From: Hexactinellida sp. DTS-2022
Lineage: Eukaryota > Porifera > Hexactinellida
NCBI GenBank assembly: GCA_028753945.1
Contig: JAPNXP010000002.1
Span: 1,302,001-1,366,000 of the forward strand
DNA: 64,000 nt
Direction: 5' to 3'
The notes beneath the pieces were generated by a model, which made no database searches, had not been told where the DNA came from, and worked only from the letters and a program-made list of their open reading frames with translations. Below are positions 7,339-54,701 of the stretch, piece by piece. A program made the position numbers and the translations under genes. Positions within the stretch are counted from its first letter, which is position 1; every line of letters starts with the position of its first letter.

Positions 7339-7584
7339 GTAATTTGTACTTTATCATTTTATTATCCCAGCTATTGTAAATACGCTTATAATCCTGGTCT
7401 GATGCAATTTTCATACGCCTAAATCACGAATTAATGTTGCGGTATAGGAGAAGATTCCAAATTTTCGCGCTCCTAATTCAAATTTTCCAAAAATCATACT
7501 CCAAAAGGAGCGTCTCGCGCTCCTGAATATATCCTTGCTCGCCACATACATATACATAATCCAACAGAAGTTAGTCAGTTAGTT

Positions 7585-8030: not shown

Positions 8031-8211
8031 CAGTAGAACCTCGTTAGTACGAACACATTTAATACGAATTTCCGGATTAGACGAACAAACAGATCCAAAA
8101 AATCAAGTCCCTACAAAGCCTAGTGAATGGGTTTTACTCCGGTTAATACGAACTCCGTATAAAGCGAACGAATTTTTTACCGTTGGTGTTCGTATTAACG
8201 AGGTTCCACTG
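8031..8211. mobile_element. Pogo/Tigger-like MITE with an identifiable empty site
   Basis: The element is 181 bp with ends CAGTRGAACCTCGTTA in inverted orientation (left CAGTAGAACCTCG, right CGAGGTTCCACTG), typical of the pogo branch of Tc1/mariner. TA follows the right end. The same intron position in cassettes 1 and 2 (about 2,146 and 5,080) reads GATTAGAGCATTTATCTCC without the element, giving a natural pre-insertion site. No transposase is encoded. Confidence 0.75.
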
Positions 8212-8219
8212 TATCTCCC

Positions 8220-8840: not shown

Positions 8841-9426
8841 CCAACGCTTTGATTCTATCCGGACAAACAGACAAACACACAACCGAGTTTTAATAATATA
8901 GATTATTGTCATTATTGCTCATCTTGTGCTAATATTTAACAATTAACGCACTTTAAAATAGCCATAATTAGATAGTAACATAGTAGAAATTATGACAAGC
9001 ATTATTACCCAACGATTGCATATTATGAAAGAGCAGGCACAAATTAAAATACTTATTTGCAAAGCGAATATTCAACTATACCAAATCATCTCATTATCAT
9101 TATCTCATCAAATAATGAGATAGTAATATACTAATAATGAGATGCTCTTGCCCGCATCTTCATATTTGCTTCATGTGGAGCAGAAACAATATTACCATTA
9201 ACACTCGCCTAAACTCCACAATGCCTAATTATTGATTTACATTAATTACAAAGTATATCTTGCTTTGTGCGCAAATAAACTTTAATAACTAATGCGTATA
9301 GGGAAAGTCTAGGGTATTCCTGCGCATATAATCAGGGTTTCATACAGGGTGGGCCTTCGAATCCCCCCACCAATAAAAAATTTGGAAAGTATGATGTCAT
9401 ATTATTATTGTTTTTTATTTCTCTAG

Positions 9427-10484: not shown

Positions 10485-10631
10485 GTACTTTAAATGCGAT
10501 TGCAATTATAATCTAAAATTGTTAATAACATGACTTTAGAGACGACTCTTGTTTTTAGACTTCTAGCTAGATTGGCATTTTTAATTAATGGACTTTCAAT
10601 GTATCTAGTATGATCTATATATTTAACTTAG

Positions 10632-30807: not shown

Positions 30808-33800
30808 CTAAAGTAGATTGCTACTTATAATAGGATACAATGCGTCATAATGATTAGAACAAGATCCAGAGAAATTAATACTATGAAACAACACAACAAG
30901 GTGTCTCCCTCCATATATTGATTCACTTGGTTTACCGAGAATATTGTCAGTAGACACATCAGTTATTACCCACTTAGAAGGGTCTGTAACAACAGCATTA
31001 ATGTAACTAACATTAATACCAGCTAAGATTCCAAATATAATAAGTTCATTCAGAGTTCCCCAAGAGTAATTACGCTTCATATTACTCAAGTGTTGCTGAA
31101 TAGTAACTGCATTATAGCCTTGGATGCCACAGAAAGCAGCAACATAAGGACTTTGTTCAAATGTGTCTATTAAAGAACCACGGATATTATGATGCTCACT
31201 TTCATCACCGAAAATAATGTGAGACAATGTTCTAAAGAAACAATTCCCATCACTTATTACAGGAACTATCCTGAAATTAAACCGATCTCTTATATTTGTA
31301 CGCATAAAATCGTAATAACTAGTAGCAGAGACTCTAGACCCAGTATAGTTAGTCGGTCTTAAAGGTATTCTCTGTAGATTAATGCATGCTGCTAATGACT
31401 TTCTCATCGCAAATGTGAATGAATTAGCATTGTCATATGCAACTACAGGAGGCAGCACAGGAGTAGGGATGTGTACATGACTAACAATTACATCCTGAAT
31501 ATCCTTGGTTGTATTATCATTTGATATTTGATCAATACCAATAATATCATGTTGACTAGTAGCATGTGATATAATTGGTTGATTATCCACATTACTACAG
31601 TCACTACAAAGAGTTCCAAGAGAAATCAACATTGGCTTATGATCACTAAAGTATGATTCATAAAAACCAGATGAACAGGTCAAGTTTTTAGTGAATACAC
31701 AATCCAGCTGAGATCCATAGTTAGTGGATACTCCAGACAAAGATTGCATAATCCCTTTATTTGCAAAATACTTTACCAGGGTATCTCTCTCAAGAGATCG
31801 CGCAAATAAATCTATATTGAAGTCCCCAGTAACAATCAAGGAATCAGAGTTATCAATTTTACATAGAACCTGATCAAGTTCCGAGTAAAGTTCCTTCATT
31901 GGGGATTGTGGTGATCGGTATATAGACATTACCACGACAGGCTTATCGATTATCATGGGATCATAGAACTGGAGAATCAATATCTCGATCCTAGCGCCAT
32001 TATGACAGCCTGAGTGTGCAACTAAAAACTTACACAACGCTGGATTTCGGGAGTATATGTGTGTACCAGAACCAGGGATTCTAGCACTACCATCAATTCT
32101 ACCAATGAGAGTATGACCAGGGATATTAAAGTTATCAGTGGCTAAAGTCATTGTCTCCTGCAAGATTAACACTTGGGATTGTACTATGAATGGATCTACG
32201 GTCAAGTCCTCCCAGTGTTTGTTCAATGAACGAACATTGTGTACATAGATATCCGGACTAGTTAGTGGAATAGACCAGAGAATAGCACAGTGTTCTCTTA
32301 ACCGCTTAAGTTCTAAGTGGACAGGATCTTTTTCAGATAACTTATTAGTTAGTTTTAGAATACCAACTACAAACAGACCAGATGCAGATTTAGCCCTACT
32401 GAGCGCGGTGTATAACGCATTACGTAGCATACGTATTTCTATATGGACTACAACACAATCGTAAGTATCGCCTTGACTCTTATGAATTGTAAGAGCTTCG
32501 GCTACTATGAAAGGAAACTGCTTCCTAACTATCTTATAACAACTCACACTTTTCCCTCTCTGGAAACGTCGTGTTTCCAATCCAATAGGAGTCCAGTTCC
32601 TTGGAATTGCATTATCTCTAAGATAACGATGTTGAGACTTTGCTCGTTTGTCCTTTCCAACTGTAGGATCGTCAAACTCAATCCAGAGGATACAGGGAAC
32701 TCGTTCCAGAGAATCGCTCTTGGTACCATATACCAGTTTCTTCAAGAGGCCAGTAGCTCCATTAACCAGACCATCTTGTATGTCGTTATTCACCGTCATG
32801 AGGTATCTAGCGCCCAGCTTCAAGAAGAGCTCATAGGGTAGTCCCTGGGTGTCACATACCTTTAGGTGTTTAATAACGTTACTCAGCTTGTCAGTGATAG
32901 CTCCAGCATTGTCTCCTACTAAAGAATCAATAGCTATAGATCTAAAACCTTCAGTGGTTAATGCATTGAGAACAATCTCGTTATGAGCATTAACACTGGC
33001 GTTTGTACTAAACAGATGGATAGATTTAATAGGAAGATTCTCATAAGAATCTTTCATAATAATTCTACTGGTAAATAGATGTATATCACCCTCAGTTAAA
33101 CAACAGTTAGCAAAATTGTTCAATGCTAATGCAAACTTCTGATCATCTTTTTGTCTCATTATTTCCGTCAGTTCTATATATGAGAATTTCTCCCAAAGGT
33201 ACGGACCAACCAGTCCGTCGTAATTATTGGCACTGGAGACTGAAATTTGAAATACATAGCTATCCATAACCGGACGTAACTGATGGAAATCTCCAACACA
33301 GATGATGGAGACACCACCAAAGTCCAGTGAATTGTCCATAATGGCTTTTAGTCGGTTATTAACCTGAGACATAATTTTACTACCAACCATGGATATTTCA
33401 TCTATTATTATAACTTTTAAACAGCTTAGCTTACTTCTTAATGTGTTACAAACATCAGAAGATAAGTTGGGCATTTCGCCGTTAAACTCCGTTACAGGTA
33501 AAGCAAATGCAGAATGTAGTGTCATACCACGGATATTAAAAGCAGCTTTACCTGTAGGAGCTGTTAGCAGTACTTTAATAGCATCAGGCTTAGTGCCAGG
33601 TAGTGAATTCATAAATCTTACCAAACCTTCGTATAAGACTCGTATTACCGTACTCTTACCAACACCAGCACCTCCTCCTATATAGAGATACATAGGAAGC
33701 TGCTTCATAGTCTTAAAGCAGTGCAGAGTGTGGAGGAATACAGTACGCTGAACCTTGTTCAGGCTGCGACACATCTCAAGGAATACCTCCTCAGTATTCA

Positions 33801-35884
33801 TGTTAGGAATAGTGAAGAATCCTCCCACAGATTTAGTTCCGGGTTCACTATTGGGATCTACAGTCCACGGATTGTCGTTCCCTGGATTGTCTACCTGGAA
33901 GTCAGTATCCTCAATAACCACTGCACCCTCATTGTTCATTATTTCCTCAATAGCAATCCCATCAAAGTTAAGCTCATCAGGGTCCAAGTCCTCAAGGATA
34001 TTAATAGCCGCGTCAATTGAGGATTGGTCTCTACTTTCAAACAATTCCCTATTCTGAGTAATCAGATTAAGATGGGTAGCATACATAGACTTAAAGTCGA
34101 TATTGTCAGTATCACTAGTGTCAGTTCTCCATGGTACAAACAGCATTAACTGTTCTCTATAAAAGTTAACTTCGTCCTGTATAATACTATACCTTCTAAA
34201 TCGGATAATTTTAGCTTTACGACGAAGTCTCATAAAACCTGTATCTTCGAGAGGAAATAGTCTCGGATTATCGACCAGGGACGCTGCTTCGTCTTCCATA
34301 TTTTCCTCCTCAAAGTCGGGATTAGTTTTACATACCCTCTTACTAGATTGGAATTCATACCATGCTGCAAACTCAGCTAGGCATGTTTCCTCTAACTCAT
34401 CAGGTCTTTGCATGTAGTGCTCAATTAGACCTGACAGAAGTATATCTACAGAATCCTGTTCCATACCCATTAGAACGGGTTTGGACTTGAGTATCCGAAC
34501 CCGTTTATTAGCAGGATTGGTGTTAATATAGATATTAGCTCTACTGCACTTAGAGAGAGGGAGACTGAGGAGATGGTAAGAAACCTCTTGAGCTGATACT
34601 TCGCTACAGCTCTGAAACTTGTATGCAATTCCCCTCAGTCTCTCCTTAATAGTGGCATTGCCTGCTTTCAGATGCATTAAGGCATCTCTCAATAACTTAG
34701 ACATCCCACGCTGGGACTTTCCGATATACGAAATAACGTAAACAGCACAAGCGTATGGATCCAATATGTATTGAAGATCCATATTAGCTTTCCAGAGATG
34801 CAATATAGTCGTATTATGAGCATTGATCCGCATTTCATTCAAATTTCGTTTCAGAAATATAGTTGGTCTATTTATACAAGATCTCAATGCAGTTATGTAT
34901 TGCTCTTCGGTAACATAGAGTTCATTAAAGAAATCCTGTATCGTTATACTACCTAAGTCAGTATCGCTCTTATCATAGGTGTCAATGAGAGTATATATTT
35001 TCTTAGCAGTCTCCTTAAGAGCTGCATTAGCAGCTATCTCCTCCTTGGTAGCCGTACTGGCATCAAACTCCAATGGTTCTAGAATTTTAGTTGATACCAT
35101 TGGAGGGTACGGAATACCAAACCTACAACGACGAAACGACTTTTTCTTATAACACGTATTTGTGTGCTTATGTCGCTGTAACTTAATGTCATCCTCAGTT
35201 ATTATACTAGTCTCATCTGGCAATTTAACTGAGATAGTACGATCAATAAATTCTAATACTTCAGGTAACGGATTGTGGTCATACTTAGGGGCATCTTGTA
35301 CCCAAAGTAATGAATGCACATGTGGGGACCCTCTTTGCTGAAATTCTATTCTCAAATAGTAATCAGTCAATTTACCAAGGGGACTAACCTCTGATCGAAG
35401 CACCTTAAATAGCTCCTTGGAGCGGTGATCAAAGTACCTAGCACAAGTGACAGGATCTCTCCTTATCAGATCTGCTCTCTCGCTCCACTGGAATTCCAGA
35501 ACCTCTTCAACAGACAGCTTGACGTCATCTAGGATCTGTTTCAGTATCCTTAGTAGCTCTAGCCATTTAGTCTCAGCAGCAGACAGAGTTAGAAAGAACG
35601 TGGGACATCCCAGCTGTCTTATCATAGACATCAGTTCTCTCTGCTTCTGCTGCCAGAATGCAGGGGTAGACCGAACTTGCTTCAAGAACTTAAAAGCCTC
35701 ATCGTCCTCAACCATTCTCTCCAGATTGTCGTCATTGAGAACATCAGACACAGTTATAGCCTGTCCGTCTGTAGACTTAGTCTTTCTCATACAAATACTG
35801 ATAGCACTGTTAAGACTAGCTGTCTCCACCAGTTTGTACTTAAGAAACAGCAGAGGGATGTTGGTACTACATCTCCTATCATAT
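30808..35884 (-). CDS. Helentron 1 exon 3: Rep-helicase-endonuclease-OTU
   Basis: The open exon starts after acceptor CCCTAG; its first base completes AG|A = Arg (LRYDRRCSTNIPL...). Order, numbered from the GTG at 35,829: Helitron-like N region (1-160), HUH motif GSPHVHSLLW (~168-176), two-Tyr Rep motif YVISYIGK (~364-371), PIF1-like helicase with GGAGVGKST (~719-727), IIIDEISM, GDFHQL, HKSQGDTYD and ALSRAKS, then APE-like nuclease (NVRSLN, LQE, TGDFNID, SDHKP), then OTU-like domain (SDGNCFFR ... NHYDALYP). All key residues I looked for are present. Product: the catalytic part of rolling-circle transposition; the nuclease and OTU parts are accessory. No internal stop. Confidence 0.9.
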
Positions 35885-36087
35885 CTAGGGTGTAAATTAA
35901 ATAGGCTAATTAGCAGATTTGAAAATTATATTTAAACTTAGTTAATTATAATTTAGATAACAAAAAGCTTATTTAACCATGGATATAACATAGTAATTTA
36001 AACTTCAAGAATATCCATGGTTGAGTAACAAAATGATATTTATAGTAGAGATTGAAATTATAAGTATTATTAGATAGTATAACTAAC

Positions 36088-36924
36088 CTCAAGATGTCAG
36101 ACTTTGATTTTTTGAGGATAGACAGGTCCTCAGGTAAGTCTCTGCATTGACCAGCAAACACACAAGGGTAAGCTAGTTCCTCTATAAACTTATCCGTGGT
36201 TAAGTACAGAGGCTTCCTCCCTTCTCCAGGAGCTAATTTCATTAGCAGGTTCTCATTAGACAGCAGCAGTGTGTCTAAAGAACCAGGGTTAATGGGGAGA
36301 TCATCCTTGGTCTCATCCCAATCATCAATCTCCTTCAACAACTCCTCAAGGTTATCGAAGAGCTCCTCGATACCAGGAACGGTCTCAGAGCCCTGTTCCT
36401 CTTCATCTACAACTACTATATCAGAAGGCTGGTCAGTAGGGTTAACAATAAAATTAACATTACTAGTACCAGTACGTGTAACAGAGTTAACCCAATTCTC
36501 TGAAACTACTACCTTCTCTAGCTTGAAGAGCTCAGTGGTAGAGAGATAGCGAGCGGCTTCTAACACTATATTGGGTCTTATCGTTTCGTATAAGTAGGGT
36601 TTCGCGAACGATAACTTTCGAAACAATTGTAACTGAATAGTTTGGGACTGTAGGAACGTCCTAGGTAACCGATTAACAGTCTTATCTACGTCTATGGGAA
36701 CATTAACAACCATGCCATGCAGTCCGTGCTGTCTCTCCCTGCCCAGAGATCTGATGTTCATGAACTCGTGTCTGGGAGATACCAGTCAGACCAGATAGCT
36801 CAGGAGGGATCTCGGGGAAAGTTAAGCCACGGCACAAGGCAATCTTAGGGACTCTGCCATCTTTGATGTTAATGAGACAGGTCTTACACACATACTCCAT
36901 GTTAAGTGTCTCATAGAGAAAAAC
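36088..36924 (-). pseudogene. Helentron 1 exon 2: DUF6570-like, frameshifted
   Basis: Acceptor CCTTTAG then GTTTTTCTC (VFLYETLNMEYVCKTCL); donor GAG/GTTAGT, phase 2. It contains the conserved run FPEIPPELSGL, GRERQHGLHGMVVNVPID and LPRTFLQSQ typical of the DUF6570 region that precedes Rep in many animal Helitrons. Relative to copy 2 it lacks 17 bp near 36,783, between two GACTG repeats. This shifts the frame after PELSGLTG, so copy 1 cannot make the full polyprotein from this reading. Confidence 0.8.
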
Positions 36925-37078: not shown

Positions 37079-38317
37079 CTGTTTGACGAAATCAGAGGTG
37101 GAAAGATTCGTTGAAACAAGTTTTTCTCTCTTAAGAATAACTACTGTTTTCCTGAAATGGAGACATCCACAACAAGAACAAACATACGTTGGACCTTGAG
37201 ATATCTGGCAGAAATAACTTTGAATAACAGAGTTACCCTCCTCTCTATTAATTCTATATTTCTCCAGAACATTTTTGTTGTGCTTTTCACGCACATCAGG
37301 ATCCTTCAATCTCTCGGCTACAGCGCTATTATGGTCAGCACGCTTATCAGGATCTTTCAATCTCTGGGTCATAGAATCTAGCTGCTGTTTATTATGCTCA
37401 GCACGCTTATCAGGATCCTTCAATCTCTCATTCATAGAATCTAGCTGCTGTTTATTATGTTCAGCACGCTTTTCAGGATCCTTCAATCTCTCATTCATAG
37501 CGTCTAGCTGCTGTTTATTATGTTCAGCACGCTTTTCAGGATCCTTCAATCTCTCATTCATAGCGTCTAGCTGCTGTTTATTATGTTCAGCACGCTTCTC
37601 AGGATCCTTCAATCTCTCATTCATAGCGTCTAGCTGCTGTTTATTATGTTCAGCACGCTTTTCAGGATCCTTCAATCTCTCATTCATAGCGTCTAGCTGC
37701 TGTTTATTATGTTCAGCACGCTTTTCAGGATCCTTCAATCTCTTTGTAATGTCCCGTAATTGATTTTCTTTGTGCTGAGATATAAAATCGGGATCCTCAC
37801 AATCTTCATTGAAACGCTCAAGACGAGCCTCATTCTCAGTTTTACAAAACTCCGAGTCATCAGTTCGTCTCTTCTTGATAGCAGCTCGATTTCTATCTTT
37901 TCTAGCCCTGTACCCTTTTCTCTTCCGAGACTTAGGGGTAGAGATACCCTTCTCAGGAGTCATTGGTATATCAGAATACTGGCTGGACAAATCGAGGTCG
38001 TTTAGAGGTACAACTTGAGACGATATCGGAGTCTGTTGTACCGTTTGAGAGGAGAATATAATCGCATCTGGTTGGGAACATTCCTCTATTTCCATAGCAC
38101 AAATTTCCTCCTCCGTTGTTGAACCAGGCCCAGGATTGATTTCAATCCCACCGATTATTAATAAGGCGCTGATGGTATTAGCCTGTAGGCGGGTAGAAAT
38201 GGGCCATAATATGTCGATACATATAGTAGACTTTTTGATTATAGACTGGGATAGTGGGGACCTAGCACGCCCACCCCAGCCACTTATTCTTGCTCTATAG
38301 AGCTCGATTGATATCAT
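37079..38317 (-). CDS. Helentron 1 exon 1: 2A-like leader, coding repeats, Cys-rich finger
   Basis: 413 codons from ATG to donor CAG/GTAATT (phase 0). Order: leader MISIELYRARISGWGG, hydrophobic stretch, 2A-like motif LLIIGGIEINPGP (residues ~53-65), acidic/Ser-rich linker, basic segment STPKSRKRKGYRARKDRNR (possible nuclear localisation), six 21-residue repeats starting RLKDPEKRAEHN plus variant 17- and 19-residue units, then GPTYVCSCCGCLHFRKTVV, a Cys-rich finger. If the 2A-like motif works, the ribosome would release a ~64-residue peptide and then continue with the main product. In this copy the leader and the repeat region share one exon. Confidence 0.75.
37310..37745 (-). repeat. Coding minisatellite, 63-bp unit (Helentron 1)
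   Basis: In-frame 63-bp units encoding RLKDPxKRAEHNKQQLDxM plus two residues, six almost identical copies, followed by one 51-bp unit (RLKDPDKRADHNSAVAE) and a degenerate last unit. The period is a multiple of three, so length change keeps the frame. Confidence 0.9.
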
Positions 38318-40820: not shown

Positions 40821-40936
40821 ATCCAAAATTGCAACCTGCGCCGACAGCATGTTCCTTTGGAGGCACTATCAATAAACAACCAACAAAATATAGTGCCACC
40901 AAAGGAACATGCGTCGGCACAGCTGCAATTTTGGAT
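40821..40936. repeat. P hairpin at the array inversion point
   Basis: Palindrome in - orientation (GCCGACAGCATG first, GCGTCGG second), while the flank on its left is in + orientation. Its two arms do not match as usual (GCAACCTGCGCC against GCAGCTGTGCC), as if joined from two different P copies. The array changes direction here. Confidence 0.8.
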
Positions 40937-41115
40937 TTTACTGTGCCGACTATACTATAGTATAGTGGCCCAGTATTGGAATCACTGCCTTTATTACTGT
41001 GCCGACTATACTATAGTATAGTGGCCCAGTTCTAATCTTACTGCCTTTATTTTTACTGTGCCGACTATACTATAGTATAGTGGCCCAGTATTGGAATCAC
41101 TGCCTTTATTATTTT
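40937..41115 (-). repeat. 50-bp palindromic mini-repeat, three copies (inverse orientation)
   Basis: Three units ACTGTGCCGACTATAC...; two carry the TATTGGAATCAC variant and the middle one TTCTAATCTT. They roughly mirror the cluster at 40,641 across the central P. Confidence 0.8.
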
Positions 41116-44100
41116 TTTTTTTTTTTTTTTTTCTCCGTAGACGGTGCCCTGGCCTGAGCTTTATAGTTGATGGGCTGAAACTTGGCATGTAGATGCGATG
41201 GGACCGTCTAATTTGCACCTGGGGTTACGATTTTTGATTAACAAATTTTTGACACATCTTTAACACCTTTCAAAATTTGTCTGGTCCATAACTCAAAATA
41301 TGTTTTACTAAACCCCCAAATTTTATTTCACATTTGGATTCACCATAAAATTCTGCGTCTGATGGGAGAAGAGAACTTTTAATAAAGATTTTTATTTCTG
41401 CCACAAATGTGGTTTGAAATTTCTTTGTTTACTCACACTTCAATTTCAGTAAAACTGTGAAATCTAATTCCATTTTTCAACTTGTAATAATTATATTGAT
41501 TTAACTTGTTAAATCTTTCACTATTGTTTCAACTTGCGATAATTAAATTGATTCAACTAATAAATTCCAGCTGGCTTCTATTTAATTCTAGTATTACTAT
41601 ACAATGGATTAAATAAATTATAATAATATAAGGAATTTGTTGACTCAACTCAACCAACCGTGGATAACATTGCTAAAATAAATTCCTGATAATATATTTT
41701 ATTATCAATACATAATGAATGAATGGCATTAAACTCTTGATGGTTTATGATAGAAACTAACTTCAAATTTATCTACCGTTCCTTGTAACTCCGACCAATT
41801 AACAAATGGTTCTTCACACCTTGGGCGTTGATGACTGGGCGAAAAAAAATCCAAAATTGCACCCTGTGCTGACAGCATGCTCCTTTGGAGGCACTATCAA
41901 TAACCAACCAATAAAATATAGTGCCACCAAAGGAACATGCGTCGGCACAGGGTGCAATTTTGGATTTTTTCTATTTTTCTCCGTAGACGGTGCCCTGGCC
42001 AGAGCTTTATAGTTGATGGGCTTAAACTTGGCATGTAGGTGCGATGGGAACGTCTAATTTGCACCTGGGTATACGATTTTTGATTAACAAATTTTTGACA
42101 CATCTTTAACACCTTTCAAATTTTGTCTGGTCCATAACTCAAAAAGTGTTTTACTAAACCCCATAATTTTATTTCACATTTGGATTCACCATAAAATTCT
42201 GCGTCTGATGGGAGAAGAAATTTTTCAATAAAGGGGTCAATTTCTGCCATAAATAGGGGTTGAAATTTCTTTGTTTACTCACACTTCAATTTCAATAAAT
42301 CTGTTAAATCTAATTCCATTGTTTCAACTTGTAATAATTATATTGATTTAACTTGTTAAATCCTACTCTATTGATTCAACTTGCTATAATTATATTGATT
42401 CAACTTATAAATTGCAGCTGGCTTCTATTTAATTGTAGTATTACTATACAATGGATTAAATAAAATAATATAATATAAGGAATTTGTTGACTAAACTCAA
42501 ATCACCGTGGATAACATTGCTAAAATAACTAACTAATAATATAATTCATTATCAATACATAATGAATGAATGGCATTGAACTCTAGATGGTTTATGATAG
42601 AAACAAACTTCAAATTTATCTACCGTTCCTTGTGACTCGGACCAAATAACAAATGCTTCTTCACACCTTGGTCGTTGATGACTTGGCGAAAAAAAATCCA
42701 AAATTGCAGCCTGCGCCGACAGCATGTTCCTTTGGAGGCACTATCAATAAACAACACAAAAATAGAGTGCCACCAAAGGAACATGCGTCGGCACAGGGTG
42801 CAATTTTGGATTTTTTTTATTTTTTCTCCGTAGACGGTGCCCTGGCCTGAGCTTTATAGTTGATGGGCTGAAACTTGGCATGTAGGTGCGTATGGACCGT
42901 CTAATTTGCACCTGGGGTTACGATTTTTGATTAACGAATTTTTGACACATCTTTAACACCTTTCAAAATTTGTCTGGTCCATAACTCAAAATATGTTTTA
43001 CTAAACCCCCAAATTTTATTTCACATTTGGATTCACCATAAAATTCTGCGTCTGATGGGAGAAGAAAACTTTCAATAAAGAGTTTTATTTCTGCCATAAA
43101 TGGGGGTTGAAATTTCTTTGTTTACTCACACTTCAGTTTCAGTATAACTGTTAAATCTAATTCCATTGTTTCAACTTGTAATAATTATATTGATTTAACT
43201 TGTTAAATCTTACTCTATTGATTCAACTTGCGATAATTAAATTGATTTAACTTATAAATTCCAGCTGGCTTCTATTTAATTGTAGTATTACTATACAATG
43301 GATTAAATATAATAATATAATATAAGGAATTTGTTGACTCAACTCAACCAACCGTGGATAACATTGCTAAAATAAATAACTAATAATATAATTTATTATC
43401 AATACATAATGAATGAGTGGCATTAAACTAAAGATGGTTTATGATAGAACCGTTAAGAATTACATTCCACAACAACGACAGATTAAGTGATATTTATTTC
43501 GGCGAGAATATTCTTGCACAATGAATGTACTGACGTAATTACGTAATTATAATTAATTCCTTTTGTATTTACACGTAACTTATATACGGTTCCAAATGGA
43601 TTATTGGGGTTATCGAGTGCGCTGAATTCAAATATGATAGTGAAATTCGATTTAAATTAATAATAAGTGCAAATAATTGAACTTTATTTATTTTGCTGGA
43701 CATAATAATGGTGTTAAATTATTAATTTATTAATTAAATATTTATACTAATTGGCTAAATTTCATTAATCTCAGAGATGATACAAGATAGAAACAAACTT
43801 TCATTTTATCAATTGGTCCTTATGCCACGTACCACCTATACAAGTGGGTCTTGACACCATGAGGTGATGATGACATCGTCAAAAAAATGTATTTTTACAA
43901 TTTTGTGAATTAAATAATTCGCATGGGTTGGTTGGAGTTGGGTGAATACACAACACGCACTTTAAAAATGCTGAGTCATCACAGATTATATTCTACTGAA
44001 ACTTGAATATCTCCCAAATGAAGTGAGCTAAATGGAAACTTCCACCACTCTAAGGGTCGTTGCCTACTGAAACACCTTTCTGTAATAATTTAACACCTTC

Positions 44101-46075
44101 ATAGTGATGATGACTAGGCGAAAAAAAATCCAAAATTGCAGCTTGTGCCGACAGCATGTTCCTTTGGAGGCACTATCAATAAACCACCACCAAAATATAG
44201 TGCCACCTAAGGACATGCGTCGGCACAGGGTGCAATTTTGGATTTTTTTTTACTGTGCCGACTATACTATAGTATAGTGGCCCAGTATTGGTCTTAGTGC
44301 TTTGGTTATTATTATTATTACTGTGCCGACTATACTATAGTATAGTGGCCCAGTATTGGTCTTAGTGCTTTGGTATATTATTATTACTGTGCCGACTATA
44401 CTATAGTATAGTGGCCCAGTTCTAATCTTAGTGCTTTGGTTAGTTATTATTATTATTATTTTTGGTCCGTAGATCGTCCACTGAACAGAGTTTAATTAAC
44501 TAAGAACCCAAAATTTCAGGACAGGTGTCTCATGGGTTACAGATGTGCACCTGGGGTCACGATTTTTTACTACATTTTTTTGGACACATTTTTGCACCTG
44601 TTTAATATTAGAAAAAGAACAATAAATAGTGCACAAATATTTAATTTATATGCATTCGATAGAGAATTAAATTCTACACCTTTTCACAGTGCACGAATTT
44701 TTAAATTGAGTTTCGTTTGTGCCACAATTGAGTTGCAAGTTTCCTTTGTTTACTAACACTTCAGTTCAATTGAAGTGTTAAATCGAATTCTATTGTTTCA
44801 ACTTGTGATAATTACATTGATTCAACTTGTGAGATCGAGTAGGCTTCTATTTTCTAATTGAAAACTAAGATTTTACATTCCATAACAACAACAGATTATG
44901 TGATTATATTTATTTCTGCTCAGAATATTCTTGAACAATGGATACATGAGATATTTAATTCTAATTAATTCGCTCTGTGTTTAACTTAGAGAAACGGTTC
45001 CAATTAGATTATTAGGGTATCGAGTGCGCTGAATTCAAATATGATAGTGAAATTAAATTTAAATTAATTATTATAGCAAATAATTGAACTTAATTTATTT
45101 TGATGTAAATAATATTGGTGTTAAATTATCTTAGATTAATTAAATATTTATACTAATTATCTAAATTTCATTAATCTCAGAAATGATACAAGATAGAAAC
45201 AAACTTTAAATTTATCAATTGGTCCTTATGGCACGTACCACCTGTACAAGTGGATCTTGACACCTTGAGGTGATGATGACATCGTCAAAAAAATGTATTT
45301 TTACAATTTTGTGAATTATATTATAAAAATGGGTTAGTTGGAGTTGGGTGATGACCCAACACTCACATAAAAAATGCTGATTCATCACTTATTATATTCT
45401 ACTGAAACTTGAATATCTTTGAAACGAAGTGAGCAAAATGGAAACTTCCACCACTCTAAGGGTCGTAGCCTTCTGAAACACCTTTATGAAATAATTTAAC
45501 ACCTTTATAGTGATGATGACTTGGTGAAAAAAAAATCCAAAATTGCAGCCTGTGCCGACAGCATGTTCCATTGGAGGCACTATCAATAGACCACCACCAA
45601 AATATAGTGCCACCAAATGAACATGCGTCGGCACAGGCTGCAATTTTGGATTTTTATTATTGGTCCGTAGCCTCTCTACTGAACAGAGTTTTATTAACTA
45701 AGAGCCCAAATTTTCAGGATATGTGTCTCATGGGTTACTGATGTGCACCTGGGGTCAGGATTTTTTATTACATTTTTTTGGACACATTTTTACACCTATT
45801 CAATGTTAGAAAAGGAACAATAAATAGTGCGCTAAGTTCAATTTATATGCATTCGATAGAGAATTAAATTCTACACCTTTTCACAGTGCACGAATTTTTA
45901 AATTGGGCTTCGTTCGTGACATTATTGACTTGCAAGTTTCCTTTGTTTACTAACACTTCAATACAATTGAATGTGTTAAATCTAATTCTATTGTTTCGAC
46001 TTGGAATAATTTTATTGATTCCAACTTGTGAAATTCGAGTAGGCTTCTATTTCAACTTAGGCATTCGTATTACTA
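41116..46075 (-). repeat. Hairpin-P array, - orientation, between the inversion and Helentron 2
   Basis: P hairpins start at 41,849, 42,696, 44,128 and 45,535. Reading on the plus strand the approach motif is CTCCGTAGACGGTGCCC, the reverse of the left arm. Several P copies here have mismatched arms, e.g. 42,696 (GCAGCCTG against GCACCCTG) and 44,128 (GCAGCTTG against GCACCCTG). Body types are the same as in the left arm. No gene. Confidence 0.85.
44244..44460 (-). repeat. 50-bp mini-repeat, three copies with variant tails
   Basis: The palindromic core is kept, but tails read GGTCTTAGTGCTTTGG instead of GGAATCACTGCC, so this cluster is an older or separate subfamily. It lies beside the P at 44,128. 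Confidence 0.75.
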
Positions 46076-46376: not shown

Positions 46377-46635
46377 ATGATTTCTATTGAGCTTTGGAGA
46401 GCAAGAATTGGAGGCTGGGGAGGAAAAGGTAGATTACCTAAAGGATGTGATGAGAGTGAGACCTGGAATTTCTACCCCATTACGAAACAGGCGGATCCGA
46501 TATTAGCACTATCATGTTGCCTGTTATTGGTAGTCATCAGGATGCTACTTGTGATCGGTGGAGTAGAGTTAAATCCTGGACCTACCGGAGGAGATCCTAA
46601 TGCCTCATCTTCTGAAGACTTCTCATCTGAAACAG
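46377..46635 (+). CDS. Helentron 2 exon 1a: leader with 2A-like motif
   Basis: ATG then MISIELWRARIGGWGG, a variable stretch, a hydrophobic run (LALSCCLLLVVIRM) and LLVIGGVELNPGP, followed by TGGDPNASSSEDFSSET. The leader, the spacing and the motif parallel copy 1 although the sequence between is unrelated. A donor ACAG/GTTATT at 46,636 (weak consensus) leaves phase 1, which matches the next exon exactly. Reading on without splicing meets a stop at 46,745; an independent 122-codon product is the alternative. Confidence 0.65.
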
Positions 46636-47445
46636 GTTATTATTTTATTTTATTGTCATTAATTATTAAGTTTCTTGATCGAGTATTTTTTAATATTTTC
46701 AAACGAATTATCCATCTATTGAAAGATGTCATCGATAATTCTTAAAATTAATACTTAACGGTTTTTTGCCTAAATCAGCCATCTTCCCCATACACTAAGT
46801 GCGTACACTGATACGGTAATACATATCTGCTTCATAATGACTGTTATTTATTACGTTAGTGTTTGTAAATTAAGATATGTTTCATACATTAAAACACTTG
46901 CACACTTACAGTTGATAATGTCAATTCTATTATTCAAATTAGTAACGAAATTGTAAGATATTTATACTATTTGTAATAATAGAGAATACTTGTAAATACT
47001 CTTACCGATTGTTCTTTTAATTCTTTACACCTCCAACATTATTTAAAATTATATTTAAATAAGATGAAATTCAATTTGAGTATTAAAATCTTAATTGTTT
47101 AATACGTTATACGCTGTCCATCAACACGTATTATACGCTAATCTCTAAACAACCAGCAATGTTTTCGAAGTAATTCAATATAGCATATTTTTAAATATTA
47201 TTGTATATACAAGATGCTAGCAAATAATCAAATTTGTATTATACAGACTATGCTATTAGTCGATAACAACAAAGGAATAACGATTTTAAACAGAAAGTTG
47301 TTCAAAGGAAATTTCATGAGCTCGATATTATAAGGTATACGTATAGTATGTATTACATTATACGTAATACGTATCCAATGAAAGACGTACAATTTAGATT
47401 AAACTTTTAATTAATTATCCTTATATGTACAATACAATATTTTAG
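46636..47445 (+). other. 810-bp intron of Helentron 2, absent from copy 1
   Basis: AT-rich, donor GTTATT and acceptor ATATTTTAG. It splits leader and repeat region that are continuous in copy 1. It contains palindromic ACGTAT-rich sequence around 47,335-47,370. No gene seen. Confidence 0.55.
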
Positions 47446-48428
47446 ATACTATGGATATTTCAAATGATCTTACTATCCGAGAATTGAGTCCAATGGATAT
47501 ACAGTTATGCTCACAAGGAGAAACTAACGAAGATTCAGAATCTGAATTGAATGCTGATCTAAGTCAGGACGTTCAGCGTACCCCGATTTCTTCTCAGGTT
47601 GTACCGATGAATGATCTCGGGCTGTCTAGTCAGTGCTCCTCTACCTGTGCTACTCCTAGCAAGGGCACACTGATCTCTACTCCTAAGTCTCGCAAGAGGA
47701 AAGGGTATAGAGCTACTAAGGATAGAAAGAGAGATGCTATTAAACAGAGGAGAACGGATGATACTGAGTTTCGTGATATTGAAAACGAAACTAGACTTGC
47801 GAGTGTCAAGAAAGATCGAGAGGATCCCGAAACACGAGCGAAACATAATAGTGATGAGTCGAAGAGATTGACAAATAAGCTCAAGGATCCAGCTGAGAGG
47901 GCGAAACATAATGCCGCTGTTGCAAATAAGCTTAAGGATCCAGCTGAAAGGGCGAAACATAATGCCGCTGTTGCAGATAAGCTTAAGGAACCAGCTGAAA
48001 GGGCGAAACATAATGCCGCTGTTGCAGATAAGCTTAAGGAACCAGCTGAAAGGGCGAAACATAATGCCGCTGTTGCAGATAAGCTTAAGGAACCAGCTGA
48101 AAGGGCGAAACATAATGTCGCTGTTGCAGATAAGCTTAAGGAACCAGCTGAAAGGGCGAAACATAATGAACGCCAGCTGAAGCTTGTTACCGAGAAACGG
48201 ATAGATTCTAAAGAGAAAATGAAACACAACCTAGCTGAGATAGATAGGTATAGGACTATGCAAGGTGCGCTTAAGTCGGTTATTCTCAAATATCTATCTG
48301 AGATTGCTGAAGGGCCCACTTTTGTTTGTTCTTGCTGTGGATGTCTCCATTTCAGGAAAACAGTAGTGATTCTTAAGAGAGAGAAACTTGTTTCAACGAA
48401 TGAGTGCAAACATGATTTCGTCAAACAG
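47446..48428 (+). CDS. Helentron 2 exon 1b: coding repeats and Cys-rich finger
   Basis: Two bases complete Asp with exon 1a, then TMDISNDL.... Conserved with copy 1: TPISSQVVPMNDL, ISTPKSRKRKGYRATKDRKR (basic, possible nuclear localisation), RRTDDTEF. Then six 17-residue units (KLKEPAERAKHNAAVAD type), one 21-residue unit (KLKEPAERAKHNERQL...), and GPTFVCSCCGCLHFRKTVV. Ends KHDFVKQ at donor CAG/GTAATT, phase 0. The regular LK.P..RA.HN repeats are predicted helical, with possible nucleic-acid or multimer contacts (inference). Confidence 0.75.
47879..48200 (+). repeat. Coding minisatellite, 51-bp unit (Helentron 2)
   Basis: Six in-frame 51-bp copies encoding KLKxPAERAKHNAAVAD, flanked by single 60-63-bp-type units. 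It is the same repeat family as in copy 1, but a different unit has been amplified. Confidence 0.9.
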
Positions 48429-48576: not shown

Positions 48577-49427
48577 GTTTTTCTCTATGAGACAGTCAAC
48601 ATGGAGTATGTGTGTAAGACATGTCTCATTTATATCAAAGATGGCAGAGTCCCTAAAATAGCGTTGTGCCGTGGCTTGTCTTTTCCCGAGATCCCTCCTG
48701 AGCTATCTGGTCTGACTGTGATTGAACAGAGACTGGTATCTCCCAGACACGAGTTCATGAACATCAGATCTCTGGGCAGGGAGAGACAGCACGGGCTGCA
48801 TGGAATGGTTGTTAATGTTCCCATAGACATGGATAAGACTGTTAATCAGTTACCTAGGACATTCTTACAGTCCCAAACCATTCAGTTACAATTGTTTCGT
48901 AAGTTATCGTTCGCGAAACCTTATTTATACGAGACGATAAGACCGAATGTAGTGTTAGAAGCAGCTCGCTATCTCTCTACCACTGAGCTCTTCAAGCTAG
49001 AGAAGGTAGTAGTTTCAGAGAACTGGGTTTATTCTGTTCCACGAACTGTCACTGGTAATGTTAATTTTATTGTTAACCCGAATGACGAGCCTTCTGATGT
49101 AGTTGTAGATGAAGAACAAGAGGGTTCTGAGACTGTTCCTGCTATTGAGGAGCTCTTCGATAACCTTGAGGAGTTGTTGAAGGAGATTGATGATTGGGAT
49201 GAGACCAAGGATGATCTCCCCATTAACCCTGGTTCTTTAGACACATTGCTGCTGTCTAATGAGAACCTGCTAATGAAATGGGCTCCTGGAGAAGGGAGGA
49301 AGCCTCTGTACTTAACCACGGATAAGTTTATAGAGGAACTAGCTTACCCTTGTGTGTTTGCTGGTCTCAAGAGAGACTTACCTGAGGACCTGTCTATCCT
49401 CAAGAAATCAAAGTCTGACATCTTGAG
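48577..49427 (+). CDS. Helentron 2 exon 2: DUF6570-like region, intact
   Basis: Acceptor ATTTAG then VFLYETVNMEYVCKTCLIYIKDG; continues LSFPEIPPELSGLTVIEQRLVSPRHEFMN, GRERQHGLHGMVVNVPIDMD, LPRTFLQSQ, an acidic middle (DEEQEGSETVP) and ends KSDIL at donor GAG/GTTAGT, phase 2. Resembles the DUF6570 region found ahead of the Rep domain in animal Helitrons; its role is not known to me. A Cys pair (CKTC) continues the finger of exon 1b. Confidence 0.8.
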
Positions 49428-49618: not shown

Positions 49619-52600
49619 ATATGATAGGAGATGTAGCACTAACATCCCTCTGCTGCTTCTCAAGTACAAACTGGTGGAGACAGCTAGTCTTAACAATGCT
49701 ATCAGTATTTGTATGAGAAAAACTAAGTCTACAATCGGACAGGCTATAACTGTGTCTGATGTTCTCAATGACGACAATCTGGAGAGAATGGTTGAGGACG
49801 ATGAGGCTTTTAAGTTCTTGAAGCAAGTCCGGTCTACCCCTGCATTCTGGCAGCAGAAGCAGAGAGAGCTGATGTCTATGATAAGACAGCTGGGATGTCC
49901 CACATTCTTTCTAACTCTGTCTGCAGCTGAGACTAAATGGCTAGAGCTACTAAGGATACTGAAACAGATCCTAGATGACGTCAAGCTGTCTGTTGAAGAG
50001 GTTCTGGAATTCCAGTGGAGCGAGAGAGCAGATCTGATAAGGAGAGATCCTGTCACTTGTGCTAGGTACTTTGATCACCGCTCCAAGGAGCTATTTAAGG
50101 TGCTTCGATCAGAGGTTAGTCCCCTTGGTAAATTGACTGATTACTATTTGAGAATAGAATTTCAGCAAAGAGGGTCCCCACATGTGCATTCATTACTTTG
50201 GGTACAAGATGCCCCTAAGTATGACCACAATCCGTTAAATGAAGTAATAGATTTTATTGATCGTACTATCTCATGTAAATTGCCAGATGAGACTAGTATA
50301 ATAACTGAGGATGATATTAAGTTACAGCGACATAAGCACACAAATACGTGTTATAAGAAAAAGTCGTTTCGCCGCTGTAGGTTTGGTATTCCGTACCCTC
50401 CAATGGTATCAACTAAAATTCTAGAACCATTGGAGTTTGCTGCCAGTACGGCTACCAAAGAGGAGATAGCTGCTAATACAGCTCTTAAGGAGACTGCTAA
50501 GAAAATATATACTCTCATTGACACCTATGATAAGAGCGATACTGACTTAGGTAGTATAACGATACAGGATTTCTTTAATGAACTCTATGTTACCGAAGAG
50601 CAATACATAACTGCATTGAGATCTTGTATAAATAGACCAACTATATTTCTGAAACGAAATTTGAATGAAATGCGGATCAATGCTCATAATACGACTATAT
50701 TGCATCTCTGGAAAGCTAATATGGATCTTCAATACATATTGGATCCATACGCTTGTGCTGTTTACGTTATTTCGTATATCGGAAAGTCCCAGCGTGGGAT
50801 GTCTAAGTTATTGAGAGATGCCTTAATGCATCTGAAAGCAGGCAATGCCACTATTAAGGAGAGACTGAGGGGAATTGCATACAAGTTTCAGAGCTGTAGC
50901 GAAGTATCAGCTCAAGAGGTTTCTTACCATCTCCTCAGTCTCCCTCTCTCTAAGTGCAGTAGAGCTAATATCTATATTAACACCAATCCTGCTAATAAAC
51001 GGGTTAGGATACTCAAGTCCAAACCCGTCCTAATGGGTATGGAACAGGATTCTGTAGATATACTTCTGTCAGGTCTAATTGAGCACTACATGCAACGACC
51101 TGATGAGTTAGAGGAAACATGCCTAGCAGAGTTTGCCGCTTGGTATGAATTCCAATCTAGTAAGCGTATGTGTAAAATTAATCCCGACTTTGAGGAGGAA
51201 AATATGGAAGACGAGGCAGCGTCCCTGGTCGATAATCCGAGACTATTCTCTCTCAAAGATACAGGTTTTATGAGACTTCGTCGAAAAGCTAAAATTATCC
51301 GATTTAGAAGGTATAGTATTATACAGGACGAAGTTAACTTTTATAGAGAACAGTTAATGCTGTTTGTACCATGGAGAACTGACACTAGTGATACTGACAA
51401 TATCGACTTTAAGTCTATGTTTGCTACCCATCTTACTCTGATTACTCAGAATAGGGAACTATTTGAAAGCAAAGACCAATCCTCAATTGACGCGGCTATT
51501 AATATCCTCGAGGACTTGGACCCTGATGAGCTTAACTTTGATGGAATTGCTATTGAGGAAATAATGAACAATGAGGGTGCAGTGGTTATTGAGGATACTG
51601 ACTTCCAGGTAGACAATCCAGGGAACGACAATTCCTGGACTGTAGATCCCAATTGTGACCCCGGAACTAAATCTGTGGGAGGATTCTTCAATATTCCTAA
51701 CATGAATACTGAGGAGGTATTCCTTGAGATGTGTCGCAGCCTGAACAAGGTTCAGCGTACTGTATTCCTCCACACTCTGCACTGCTTTAAGACTATGAAG
51801 CAGCTGCCTATGTATCTCTATATAGGAGGAGGTGCTGGTGTTGGTAAGAGTACGGTGGTACGAGTCTTATACGAAGGTTTGGTAAGATTTATGAATTCAC
51901 TACCTGGCACTAAGCCTGATGCTATTAAGGTACTGCTAACAGCTCCTACAGGTAAAGCTGCTTTTAATATCCGTGGTATGACACTCCATTCTGCATTTGC
52001 TTTACCTGTAACGGAGTTTAACGGCGAAATGCCCAACTTATCTTCTGATGTTTGTAATACATTAAGAAGTAAGCTAAGCTGTTTGAAAGTAATCATAATA
52101 GATGAAATATCCATGGTTGGTAGTAAAATTTTGTCTCAGGTTAATAAGCGATTGAAAGCCATTATGGATAATTCACTGGACTTTGGTGGTGTCTCCATCA
52201 TCTGTGTTGGAGATTTCCATCAGTTACGTCCGGTTAAGGATAGCTATGTCTTTCAAATTTCAGTTTCCAGTGCCAATAATTACGACGGACTGGTTGGTCC
52301 GTACCTTTGGGAAAAATTCTCATATATAGAACTGACGGAAATAATGAGACAAAAAGATGATCAGAAGTTTGCATTAGCATTGAACAATTTTGCTAACTGT
52401 TGTTTAACTGAGGATGACACAAATCTTTTTACCAGTAGAATTATTGCGAAAGATTCTTATGAGAATCTTCCCATAAAATCTATCCATCTGTTTAGTACTA
52501 ACGCTAGTGTTAATGCTCATAACGAGATTGTTCTCAATGCATTAACCACTGAAGGTTTTAGATTTATAGCTATTGATTCTTTAGTAGGAGATACTGCTGG

Positions 52601-54701
52601 TGGAATTACTGACAAGCTGAGTAACGTTATTAAACACCTAAAGGTATGTGACACCCAGGGACTACCCTATGAGCTCTTCTTGAAGCTGGGCGCTAGATAC
52701 CTCATGACGCTGAATATCAATATACAAGATGGTCTGGTTAATGGGGCTACTGGACTCTTGAAGAGAATAGTTTATGGAACCAAGAGCGATTCTCTGGAAC
52801 GAGTTCCCTGTATCCTCTGGATCGAGTTTGACGATCTAACAGTTGGAAAGGACAAACGAGCAAAGTCTCAACATCGTTATCTTAGAGATAATGCAATTCC
52901 AAGGAACTGGACTCCTATTGGATTGGAAACACGACGTTTCCAGAGAGGGAAAGCCGTGAGTTGTTATAAGATAGTTAGGAAGCAGTTTTCTTTCATAGTA
53001 GCTGAAGCTCTTACAATTCATAAGAGTCAAGGCGATACTTACGATTGTGTTGTAGTCCATATAGAAGTACGTATGCTACGTACTGCATTATACACCGCGC
53101 TCAGTAGGGCTAAATCTGCATCTGGTCTGTTTGTAGTGGGTAATCTAAAACTAACTAATAAGTTATCTGAAAAAGATCCTGTCCACTTAGAACTTAAGCG
53201 GTTAAGAGACCACTGTGCTATTATATGGTCTATTCCACTAACTAGTCCAGATATCTATGTACACAATGTTCGTTCATTGAACAAACACTGGGAAGATTTG
53301 ACCGTAAATTCATTCATAGTACAATCCCAAGTGTTAATCTTGCAGGAGACAATGACTTTGACCACTGATAACTTTAATATCCCTGGTCATACTCTCATTG
53401 GTAGAATTGATAGTAGTGCTAGAATCCCTGGTTCTGGTACACACATATACTCCCGAAATCCAGCGGTGTGTAAGTTTTTAGTTGCACACTCAGGCTGTTA
53501 TAATGGCGCTAGGATCGAGATATTGATTATCCAGTTCTATGATCCCATGATAATAGATAAGCCTATCGTGGTAATGTCTATATACCGATCACCACATTCC
53601 CCTATGAAGGAATTTTACTCTGAGCTTGATCAGGTTCTAAGTAAAATTGATAACTCTGATCCCTTGATAATTACTGGGGACTTCAATTTAGATTTATTTG
53701 CGCGATCTCCTGAGAGAGATACCTTGATAAAGTATTTTGCAAATAAAGGGATGATACAATCTTTGTCTGGAGTATCCACTAACTATGGATCTCAGCTGGA
53801 TTGTGTATTCACTAAAAACTTGACCTGTTCATCTGATTTTTATGAATCATACTTTAGTGATCATAAGCCAATGTTGATTTCTCTTGGAACTGGTGTTAGT
53901 TACTGTAGTAATGTGGATAATCAACCAATTATATCACATGCTACTAGTCAACATGATATCATTGATATTGACCATATACCAAATGATAATACAACCAAGG
54001 ATATTCAGGATGTAATTGTTAGTCATGTGTCCATCCCTACTCCTTTGCTGCCTCCTGTAATTACATATGATAATGCTAATTCTTTCACGTTTGCAATGAG
54101 ACAGTCATTAGCACAATGTATTAATCTACAGAGAATACCTTTAAGACCGACTAACTATACTGGGTCTAGAGTCTCAGCTACTGGTTATTATGATTTTATG
54201 CGTACAAATGTAAGAGATCGGTTTAATTTCAGGATAGTTCCTGTAACAAGTGATGGGAATTGTTTCTTTAGAACATTGTCTCACATAATCTTCGGTGATG
54301 AAAGTGAGCATCATAATATCCGTGGTTCTTTAATAGACACATTTGAACAAAGTCCTTATGTTGCTGCTTTCTGTGGCATCCAAGGCTATAATGCAGTTAC
54401 TATTCAGCAACACTTGAGTAATATGAAGCGTAATTACTCTTGGGGAACTCTGAATGAACTTATTATGTTTGGAATCTTAGCTGGTATTAATGTGAGTTAC
54501 ATTAATGCTGTTGTTACAGACCCTTCTAAGTGGGTAATAACTGATGTGTCTACTGAGAATACTCTTGGTAAACCAAGTGATCCAATATATGGAGGGAGAC
54601 ACCTTGTTGTGTTGTTTCATAGTATTAATTTCTCTGGATCTTGTTCTAATCATTATGACGCATTGTATCCTGTTAATAATGCTCATAATTCTGTTTATTA
54701 A
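49619..54701 (+). CDS. Helentron 2 exon 3: Rep-helicase-endonuclease-OTU
   Basis: Acceptor TTCCCTAG; the first A completes Arg (RYDRRCSTNIPLLLLKYK). Numbered from the GTG at 49,674: HUH His170/His172 in GSPHVHSLLW; Rep Tyr364, Tyr368 and Lys371 in YVISYIGK (Tyr spacing as in active Helitron Reps); Walker A Lys725 in GGAGVGKST; Walker B Asp810 in IIIDEISM; GDFHQL (846-851); HKSQGDTYD (~1116); ALSRAKS; APE-like nuclease NVRSLN (~1197), LQE (~1225), TGDFNLD (~1335), SDHKP (~1395); OTU-like SDGNCFFR (~1525) and NHYD (~1659). Stop TAA at the end. It would nick, unwind and transfer a single strand; the OTU role is unknown. No disabling change seen. Confidence 0.92.

What the first reader, a model, noticed from the sequence alone, without database searches (positions are those of the whole stretch)
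46377..46635. 2A-like ribosome-skipping motif in the leader of a rolling-circle transposon (copy 2)
The leader carries LLVIGGVELNPGP after a hydrophobic run. 2A peptides share D-(V/I)-E-x-N-P-G-P; here Gly replaces Asp and every other position fits. 2A-like leaders are known from some APE-type non-LTR elements and some animal receptors; I do not know of one in a Helitron or Helentron. If active it would separate a short hydrophobic leader from the replication polyprotein.
Basis: partly seen in the sequence, partly recalled or inferred. Interest (0 to 1): 0.8.

Follow-up and report, generated by a model that had tools for sequence, protein, structure and literature searches.

The report
Shared ribosome-skipping leader of DNA transposons
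Rolling-circle transposons in this genome begin their protein with a short leader ending in a 2A-type ribosome-skipping signal, and a related leader sits on unrelated transposons of the same genome; 2A signals are best known from viruses and retrotransposons, and whether this one works has not been tested.

Summary
The motif is real: window 46560-46583 (+) encodes GVELNPGP. Gly at the Asp position is no defect; published work sets the StopGo/2A core as (D/G/C/N)(V/I)ExNPGP. The other Helentron in the window carries GIEINPGP. Genome-wide the core pattern occurs 130 times, its reversed control 0 times. Of 22 Helentron replicase copies with an open frame of at least 1000 aa, 19 have the core upstream; of 94 higher-scoring Helitron hits, taken as the other class, none has. 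In subfamily A the core is strongly constrained (pN/pS 0.03, against 1.03 and 0.45 beside it); in the other families evidence is weaker or absent. In copy 2, three GT-AG introns put leader, 2A, ORF1 and replicase in one 2391-aa frame; skipping would release a 68-residue leader.

The window's two Helentrons have 94.7% identical replicases but anciently diverged 5' modules, both with 2A. The leader looks like an exchangeable StopGo module of DNA transposons. Activity is untested, no relatives were found outside this genome, and one survey of eukaryotic 2A sequences could not be read.

The parts
46377..46635 (+). Leader exon of Helentron copy 2 (subfamily B): MISIELWRARIGG..., hydrophobic run, 2A core, ends at splice donor
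46560..46583 (+). StopGo/2A core octapeptide GVELNPGP (residues 62-69); predicted skip between G (46578-46580) and P (46581-46583)
   Evidence: motif definition PMC12846837
46636..47445 (+). Predicted intron 1, GT...AG, 810 nt; joins leader to ORF1 in frame. Donor and the same acceptor context found in 4 of 8 subfamily-B loci looked at
47446..48428 (+). Exon 2: ORF1 with 17-residue KEPAERAKHN-type tandem repeats and CSCCGC cysteine cluster
48577..49427 (+). Exon 3: DUF6570 domain
   Evidence: PF20209 1e-15; splice sites
49619..54701 (+). Exon 4: Rep (Helitron_like_N), PIF1 helicase, Exo_endo_phos endonuclease, C-terminal OTU-like region (weak)
37079..38317 (-). Helentron copy 1 (subfamily A) exon 1: leader MISIELYRARISGWGG..., 2A core and ORF1 in one uninterrupted frame
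38126..38149 (-). 2A core GIEINPGP of copy 1 (residues 57-64)
36088..36924 (-). Copy 1 exon corresponding to the DUF6570 exon of copy 2; its reading frame is broken inside (joined model stops at codon 487)
   Evidence: no Pfam hit for the ORF 35973-36761 at 0.001
30808..35884 (-). Copy 1 Rep-helicase-endonuclease-OTU exon, 94.7% aa identical to copy 2 over 1673 aligned residues

Best explanation
The leader ends in a genuine StopGo/2A element that is selectively maintained at least in subfamily A. While translating the Helentron polyprotein mRNA, the ribosome is expected to fail to join Gly to Pro in NPG|P. It would release a leader of 63 (copy 1) or 68 (copy 2) residues and go on, starting with Pro, to make the ORF1-DUF6570-Rep-helicase-endonuclease-OTU protein. 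A fraction of ribosomes may not skip and would leave the leader attached. In subfamily B the leader is hydrophobic enough that unskipped protein could be drawn to membranes, as proposed for sea-urchin 2A signal sequences; in subfamily A it is not, so separation rather than membrane targeting is the shared property. The leader is a module that different DNA transposons of this genome have in common (Helentron, Mutator-like, an OTU-bearing transposon) and that has been exchanged between elements. Shown: motif, conservation, reading frame, leader homology, mosaic divergence. Inferred: skipping in vivo, the fate of the leader peptide, exchange as the cause of the mosaic.
For: Core present and far above chance. 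19 of 22 replicase copies with open frames >=1000 aa have it upstream within 13 kb. 27 of 56 Helitron_like_N hits under 106 bits (the group that holds the Helentrons) against 0 of 94 hits at or above 106 bits have a core within 12 kb upstream on the same strand; random placement mean 1.14, largest 7 in 200 trials (127 of the 130 core sites used, those with G or D first). Leader starts found without reference to the 2A core: 65 genome-wide, control 0; 45 of 65 have the exact core 120-220 nt downstream, 40 of them at a distance divisible by three, one of these (L104) with a stop between. Pooled pairwise pN/pS in subfamily A, 15 leaders: core 0.032, codons 11-42 1.03, codons 43-56 0.22, downstream 0.45. 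Minimum independent changes, A core 5 synonymous and 1 nonsynonymous, flank 32 and 59, one-sided p 0.029; A, B and Mutator-like pooled p 0.023; not corrected for several tests. One 2391-aa frame through three GT-AG introns in copy 2; in the Mutator-like element one uninterrupted 834-aa ORF holds leader, 2A and transposase (PF20700 1.4e-37). A profile of eight Mutator-like leaders cut before the 2A core finds 24 of 24 Helentron leaders given (8.5e-11 to 3.7e-7) and 5 of 5 family-C leaders given (6.8e-5 to 2.2e-4); best of 1450 shuffles 0.066. Copy 1 against copy 2: pS 0.081 replicase, 0.73 leader, 0.63 ORF1.
Against: No translation data. 20 of 65 leader starts lack the exact core at the expected distance; 11 of those 20 keep an open frame up to it but carry a substitution in it: E to Q in one Helentron with an intact replicase frame, E to Q plus G to R in another, N to H in two Mutator-like leaders, final Pro to Leu or Phe, Pro to Ser (three near-identical copies), Gly to Ser. 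The constraint on the core is not significant in subfamily B (p 0.42), to which this copy belongs, or in the Mutator-like family (p 0.31) taken alone, and in five family-C leaders the core is no more conserved than its flanks (pN/pS 0.63). Pairwise pN/pS values pool non-independent pairs. Copy 1 is itself broken in its second exon. No relative outside this genome was found.
Confidence: 0.75

Rival explanations
1. The leader is a membrane-anchoring or signal segment and NPGP is only a turn at its end; no skipping.
For: Hydrophobic 19-residue windows of 2.5-3.0 just before the core in the leaders of subfamilies B and E, family C and the Mutator-like family that were measured (6 of 6); sea-urchin 2A leaders act also as signal sequences (PMC4981915, abstract start in listing and one passage).
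Against: The three subfamily A leaders measured have no such run (1.05-1.17) yet subfamily A keeps the core at pN/pS 0.03; the residues kept are those of StopGo, with free synonymous change.
Confidence: 0.1
2. Relic: the 2A was inherited from an ancestral element or virus and is now neutral baggage.
For: Eleven leaders with open frames have substituted cores; the test is not significant in subfamily B and the Mutator-like family alone.
Against: 19 of 22 open-frame Helentrons keep it; subfamily A constraint; kept in two 5' modules whose synonymous sites differ by pS 0.73.
Confidence: 0.1
3. The leader ORF of subfamily B is a stand-alone 122-aa product or upstream ORF (unspliced reading runs to a stop at 46745) and is not joined to the replicase.
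For: ORF 46377-46745 is open without splicing; no cDNA was available.
Against: In subfamily A leader and ORF1 share one uninterrupted frame; in the Mutator-like element leader and transposase do too; in copy 2 splicing gives one 2391-aa frame.
Confidence: 0.05

Closest known systems
StopGo/2A elements of RNA viruses ((D/G/C/N)(V/I)ExNPGP; L-rich and motif-5 classes in PMC12846837)
   Same: Core octapeptide with G at the first position; leucine/isoleucine-rich hexapeptide before it; GG at positions 11-12 fits the (A/G/S)G ending described for motif 5; synonymous codons vary.
   Different: Sits in a DNA transposon leader, not in a viral polyprotein; activity untested.
2A sequences of APE-type non-LTR retrotransposons (Odon et al. 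2013; title seen in a reference list; paper not held)
   Same: Transposon with a 2A; both encode an APE-type endonuclease (for the retrotransposons from the title).
   Different: Helentrons are rolling-circle DNA elements; no reverse transcriptase domain among the hits of the ORFs scanned beyond the endonuclease family PF14529. The leader also occurs on a Mutator-like element, with no endonuclease hit in the pieces scanned.
Sea-urchin 2A-like signal sequences (Roulston et al. 2016, PMC4981915; abstract start and one passage seen)
   Same: N-terminal leader with hydrophobic run followed by a 2A core; dual fate conceivable.
   Different: Host proteins there; here transposons, and subfamily A lacks the hydrophobic run.
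Helentrons (PMC4067079, passages read)
   Same: Rep/helicase with C-terminal endonuclease; OTU-type protease associated.
   Different: No 2A leader mentioned in the passages seen; here the OTU-like region is fused at the C-terminus, and no RPA hit was among the ORFs scanned.

Membership tests
StopGo/2A element | Core (D/G/C/N)(V/I)ExNPGP | tested here: met
   GVELNPGP; definition
StopGo/2A element | Supportive upstream hexapeptide (L-rich or other known class) | tested here: inconclusive
   MLLVIG before p12=G resembles the L-rich classes and the (A/G/S)G ending of motif 5 as described in PMC12846837; compared by eye, no MEME/FIMO run
StopGo/2A element | In frame with coding sequence on both sides | tested here: met
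   copy 2 after predicted splicing; subfamily A without splicing; Mutator-like
StopGo/2A element | Amino-acid constraint on the core, subfamily A | tested here: met
   pN/pS 0.032; p 0.029 uncorrected
StopGo/2A element | Amino-acid constraint on the core, subfamily B (this copy's) | tested here: inconclusive
   pN/pS 0.09 but p 0.42 with 3 changes in the core; 8 of 15 B leader rows used, window copy 2 not among them because of a length difference
StopGo/2A element | Two products from one frame in translation | not testable with these tools
   needs wet-lab assay
Helentron | Helitron-type Rep plus PIF1 helicase | tested here: met
   PF14214 4e-28, PF05970 1.9e-24
Helentron | APE-type endonuclease fused C-terminal to the helicase | tested here: met
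   PF14529 1.5e-09
Helentron | OTU protease | tested here: inconclusive
   PF02338 only 0.03, 15.3 bits against a cut-off of 23.3
Helentron | Terminal structures and insertion-site preference | not tested
   element ends not delimited
Mutator-like DNA transposon (second carrier of the leader) | Mutator-like transposase domain in the same ORF as the leader | tested here: met
   PF20700 1.4e-37 in L088; uninterrupted 834-aa ORF in L081+L088

The most novel reading that the evidence does not exclude
A single StopGo leader, a conserved MIS(I/L)E-x-(W/Y)R-x-RI head with a 2A core, is a mobile expression module passed among unrelated classes of DNA transposons (rolling-circle Helentron, Mutator-like, OTU-bearing), each using it to cut its replication or transposition protein free from a common leader peptide; 2A would then be a general translation strategy of DNA transposons in this lineage and not only of RNA viruses and retrotransposons.
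Probability: 0.55. Interest if true: 0.8.

Novelty: new variant of a known kind. Interest (0 to 1): 0.66.

Why it matters
StopGo is regarded as largely viral and rare in cellular genes (PMC12846837). A genome with 130 core matches, in which the cores examined lie largely in front of transposon proteins of several classes, would show that transposons are a natural home of it and a possible route by which host genes acquire it. It also gives a ready test set: natural leaders with G, D or N at the first core position and with N-to-H, E-to-Q and terminal-Pro changes. The mosaic of recent replicase and ancient 5' module raises the question of how rolling-circle and cut-and-paste elements come to share a leader.

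Tried and rejected
Chance: rejected by shuffles and reversed-pattern controls. A window-only curiosity: rejected by genome-wide counts. Gly for Asp as a defect: rejected from PMC12846837 and PMC6249498. Fast protein evolution alone as the cause of the diverged 5' half: does not explain pS of 0.73 beside 0.08; recombination or module replacement fits better.

Led nowhere: scans for relatives of the replicase (viral contigs, genome contigs), of the leader alignment and of the Mutator-like protein (viral contigs) found none. Wnt search to place the host found nothing, but its controls were silent too, so the host stays unidentified; an animal is my inference from the adhesion-type GPCR in the window. 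Family C gave no Pfam hit besides OTU and only one PDB sequence, over the OTU part (6dx2); its fold prediction (ticket) had not finished at ten collections and was not used. Thirty loci around the higher-scoring Helitron hits (L035-L064) were fetched but not read. Rao et al. 2025 (Cell Rep 44, 115822) and Odon et al. 2013 are not held, so whether the first already lists 2A in DNA transposons is open. Luke et al. 2008 (PMC2885027): one passage seen, nothing on transposons.

Rows dropped: of the leader rows I used 15 of 21 of type A (six broken or interrupted rows out), 8 of 15 of type B (rows of other length or spelling, window copy 2 among them, or broken out), 8 of 10 Mutator-like (two broken out) and, and as profile targets, 5 of 9 of family C (four broken out). 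In one search one contig length (C10) in the random-placement control was a guess of mine.

Full report
What is there. The ORF starting at 46377 (+) encodes a leader that ends in IGGVELNPGP. A degenerate DNA pattern for GVELNPGP with up to 3 mismatches matches twice in the window and in none of 100 shuffles as often; the second match is GIEINPGP in the other, inverted Helentron copy at 38127-38149 (-). The window lies in an assembly of 112.4 Mb in 18 contigs that can be searched. Exact GVELNPGP occurs 16 times there, the wider pattern for (R-class codon)(V/I)ExNPGP 130 times, reversed controls 0; 75 of the matches have G and 52 have D at the first position.

Is the core a proper 2A core? The 2026 survey and structure paper (PMC12846837; abstract and sections 9, 10 and 14 read) sets the core as (D/G/C/N)(V/I)ExNPGP, finds G as prevalent as D in RNA viruses, and describes leucine-rich upstream classes and one class ending in (A/G/S)G at the first core position. 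The leader's MLLVIG-G fits that description by eye. Duck hepatitis A virus uses GxExNPGP (PMC6249498, abstract and passages).

Is it part of the element? 27 of 56 Helitron_like_N hits under 106 bits have a core within 12 kb upstream on the same strand, 0 of 94 hits at or above 106 bits have; 200 random placements of the hits gave a mean of 1.14 and at most 7 (150 of 151 hits typed in, where 150 of 292 candidates had been scored; 127 of 130 core sites used). I take the higher-scoring group as the other Helitron class by score alone; the lower group also holds partial hits. Taking Helentron replicases alone (109 matches), 22 have an open frame of at least 1000 aa and 19 of these have a core upstream within 13 kb, one at 10 kb and one (L102) behind a frameshifted leader. 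The three without: one has an intact leader with E changed to Q (L090), one has its leader interrupted (L092), and for one no leader was found in the 1.7 kb looked at (L089).

Selection. To avoid finding only what was sought, leaders were also located by their first ten codons: 65 sites, control 0. 45 have the exact core 120-220 nt downstream, 40 of them at a distance divisible by three, one of which (L104) has a stop between. Of the 20 others, two have a core displaced further downstream (by coordinates, 494 and 680 nt), seven are broken by stops, frameshifts or interruption at or before the core, and eleven keep the frame up to the core but carry a substitution in it, two of them the N-to-H change that the 2026 paper found active in viral contexts (PMC12846837 section 9). 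In subfamily A (15 distinct leaders) pooled pN/pS is 0.032 in the core against 1.03, 0.22 and 0.45 in the segments around it; in B (8) 0.09 against 0.42, 0.23 and 2.47; in the Mutator-like family (8) 0.37 against 0.66, 0.36 and 0.62; in family C (5) 0.63 against 0.32, 0.00 and 0.30. Counting minimal independent changes, only A is significant alone (p 0.029; B 0.42; Mutator-like 0.31); the three pooled give p 0.023. These p values are not corrected for the number of tests.

Reading frame. Copy 2: exon 46377-46635, intron, exon 47446-48428, intron, exon 48577-49427, intron, exon 49619-54701; all three introns are GT-AG and the joined exons read 2391 codons to the stop with the core at residues 62-69. 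Donor and acceptor context of the first intron were both found in 4 of 8 subfamily-B loci looked at (L002, L004, L007, L008). The other two junctions are shared by copy 1, and the first of these two by L016. Copy 1 lacks the first intron, so its leader, core (residues 57-64) and ORF1 are one uninterrupted frame, but its joined model stops at codon 487, inside its second exon: copy 1 is broken there. Pfam shows DUF6570 (copy 2 only), Helitron_like_N, PIF1 and Exo_endo_phos; OTU only weakly. Skipping would thus part the leader from the whole replication polyprotein.

A leader shared by other transposons. The same head and core begin a Mutator-like element (L079-L081, L087, L088): in L081+L088 one uninterrupted ORF of 834 aa runs from the leader through 2A to a PF20700 transposase; in L079+L087 the frame ends after 252 codons. 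They also begin family C, whose leader joins, in the one copy where the join was made (L020), through a 55-nt intron to a protein type that ends in an OTU domain in L085. A profile of eight Mutator-like leaders cut before the 2A finds 24 of 24 Helentron leaders given (8.5e-11 to 3.7e-7) and 5 of 5 family-C leaders given (6.8e-5 to 2.2e-4); best of 1450 shuffles 0.066. By identity, the copy-2 leader is as close to four Mutator-like leaders (38-43%) as to the copy-1 Helentron leader (43%), although the two replicases are 94.7% identical. Synonymous divergence between the copies is 0.081 in the replicase, 0.164 in the DUF6570 ORF, 0.63 in ORF1 and 0.73 in the leader. Module exchange is my reading of this.

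Further 2A cores without that head lie in front of other transposon proteins: D-type families with a short intron right after the core (L018, L025 open well beyond it; L010 and L022 broken within about 45 codons); another D-type family ends in OTU (L013/L086; its own junction not tested); an integrase-type element with 2A and rve in one 529-aa ORF (L015); and a retroelement-like locus with NIETNPGP (L026, named by eye, no Pfam hit for the piece scanned). I classified only loci for which I held sequence; most of the 52 D-type sites were not examined.

Mechanism. The likely course is StopGo at NPG|P with release of a leader of 63 (copy 1) or 68 (copy 2) residues. The hydrophobic run before the core is strong in the B, E, C and Mutator-like leaders measured (best 19-residue mean 2.5-3.0, 6 of 6) and absent in the A leaders measured (1.05-1.17, 3 of 3), so the common trait is the 2A core and not a membrane segment. 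What the free leader does is unknown; its conserved head suggests a function of its own.

Novelty. In the held library no paper has Helitron together with 2A-like or NPGP; searches pairing NPGP with transposase (12 of 13 papers listed) or StopGo and 2A terms with transposon terms (20 of 161 listed) showed none about a natural 2A in a DNA transposon, judged from titles and abstract starts. 2A in non-LTR retrotransposons is known (title of Odon 2013 in a reference list). Rao et al. 2025 surveyed eukaryotic 2A sequences and could not be read; it may hold part of this.

Noticed in passing
window 1-10500: ORFs with DSDRDGYPDYG repeats (TSP3-like by eye) recur at about 2.93-kb spacing (73, 2746, 5680, then a diverged copy at 9408), next to an adhesion-type GPCR ORF at 13666-16434 (7tm_2): recent tandem duplications.
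   Followed up: no
window 38807-45661: Dense array of inverted repeats (86-94% complementary, 115-650 nt, among the 25 of 70 pairs shown) between the two inverted Helentron copies, with a partly palindromic 56-68-nt unit repeated.
   Followed up: no
window 37327-37810 and 47875-48168: ORF1 of both Helentrons carries tandem repeats of different unit length (63 nt in copy 1, 51 nt in copy 2) encoding KDPEKRAEHN / KEPAERAKHN units, which look related by eye.
   Followed up: partly
window 36088-36924: Copy 1 has a reading-frame break in the exon that matches the DUF6570 exon of copy 2, though its leader, ORF1 and replicase frames are open.
   Followed up: partly
G000:C11:1374711 (about 8.7 kb right of the window): A third Helentron with the GIEINPGP core close to the two in the window; its leader is frameshifted (L102) while its replicase frame is open.
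   Followed up: partly
L015, L014, L024, L084: Integrase-type element with DIESNPGP or DVESNPGP; in L015 2A and the rve domain are in one ORF, a further transposon class with 2A.
   Followed up: partly
L085, L086: Transposon proteins with no Pfam match except a C-terminal OTU protease; possible D/D/E residues by eye; superfamily not identified.
   Followed up: partly
L116, L123: Mutator-like leaders with GVEEHPGP, the N-to-H core variant reported active in viral 2A contexts (PMC12846837 section 9).
   Followed up: no
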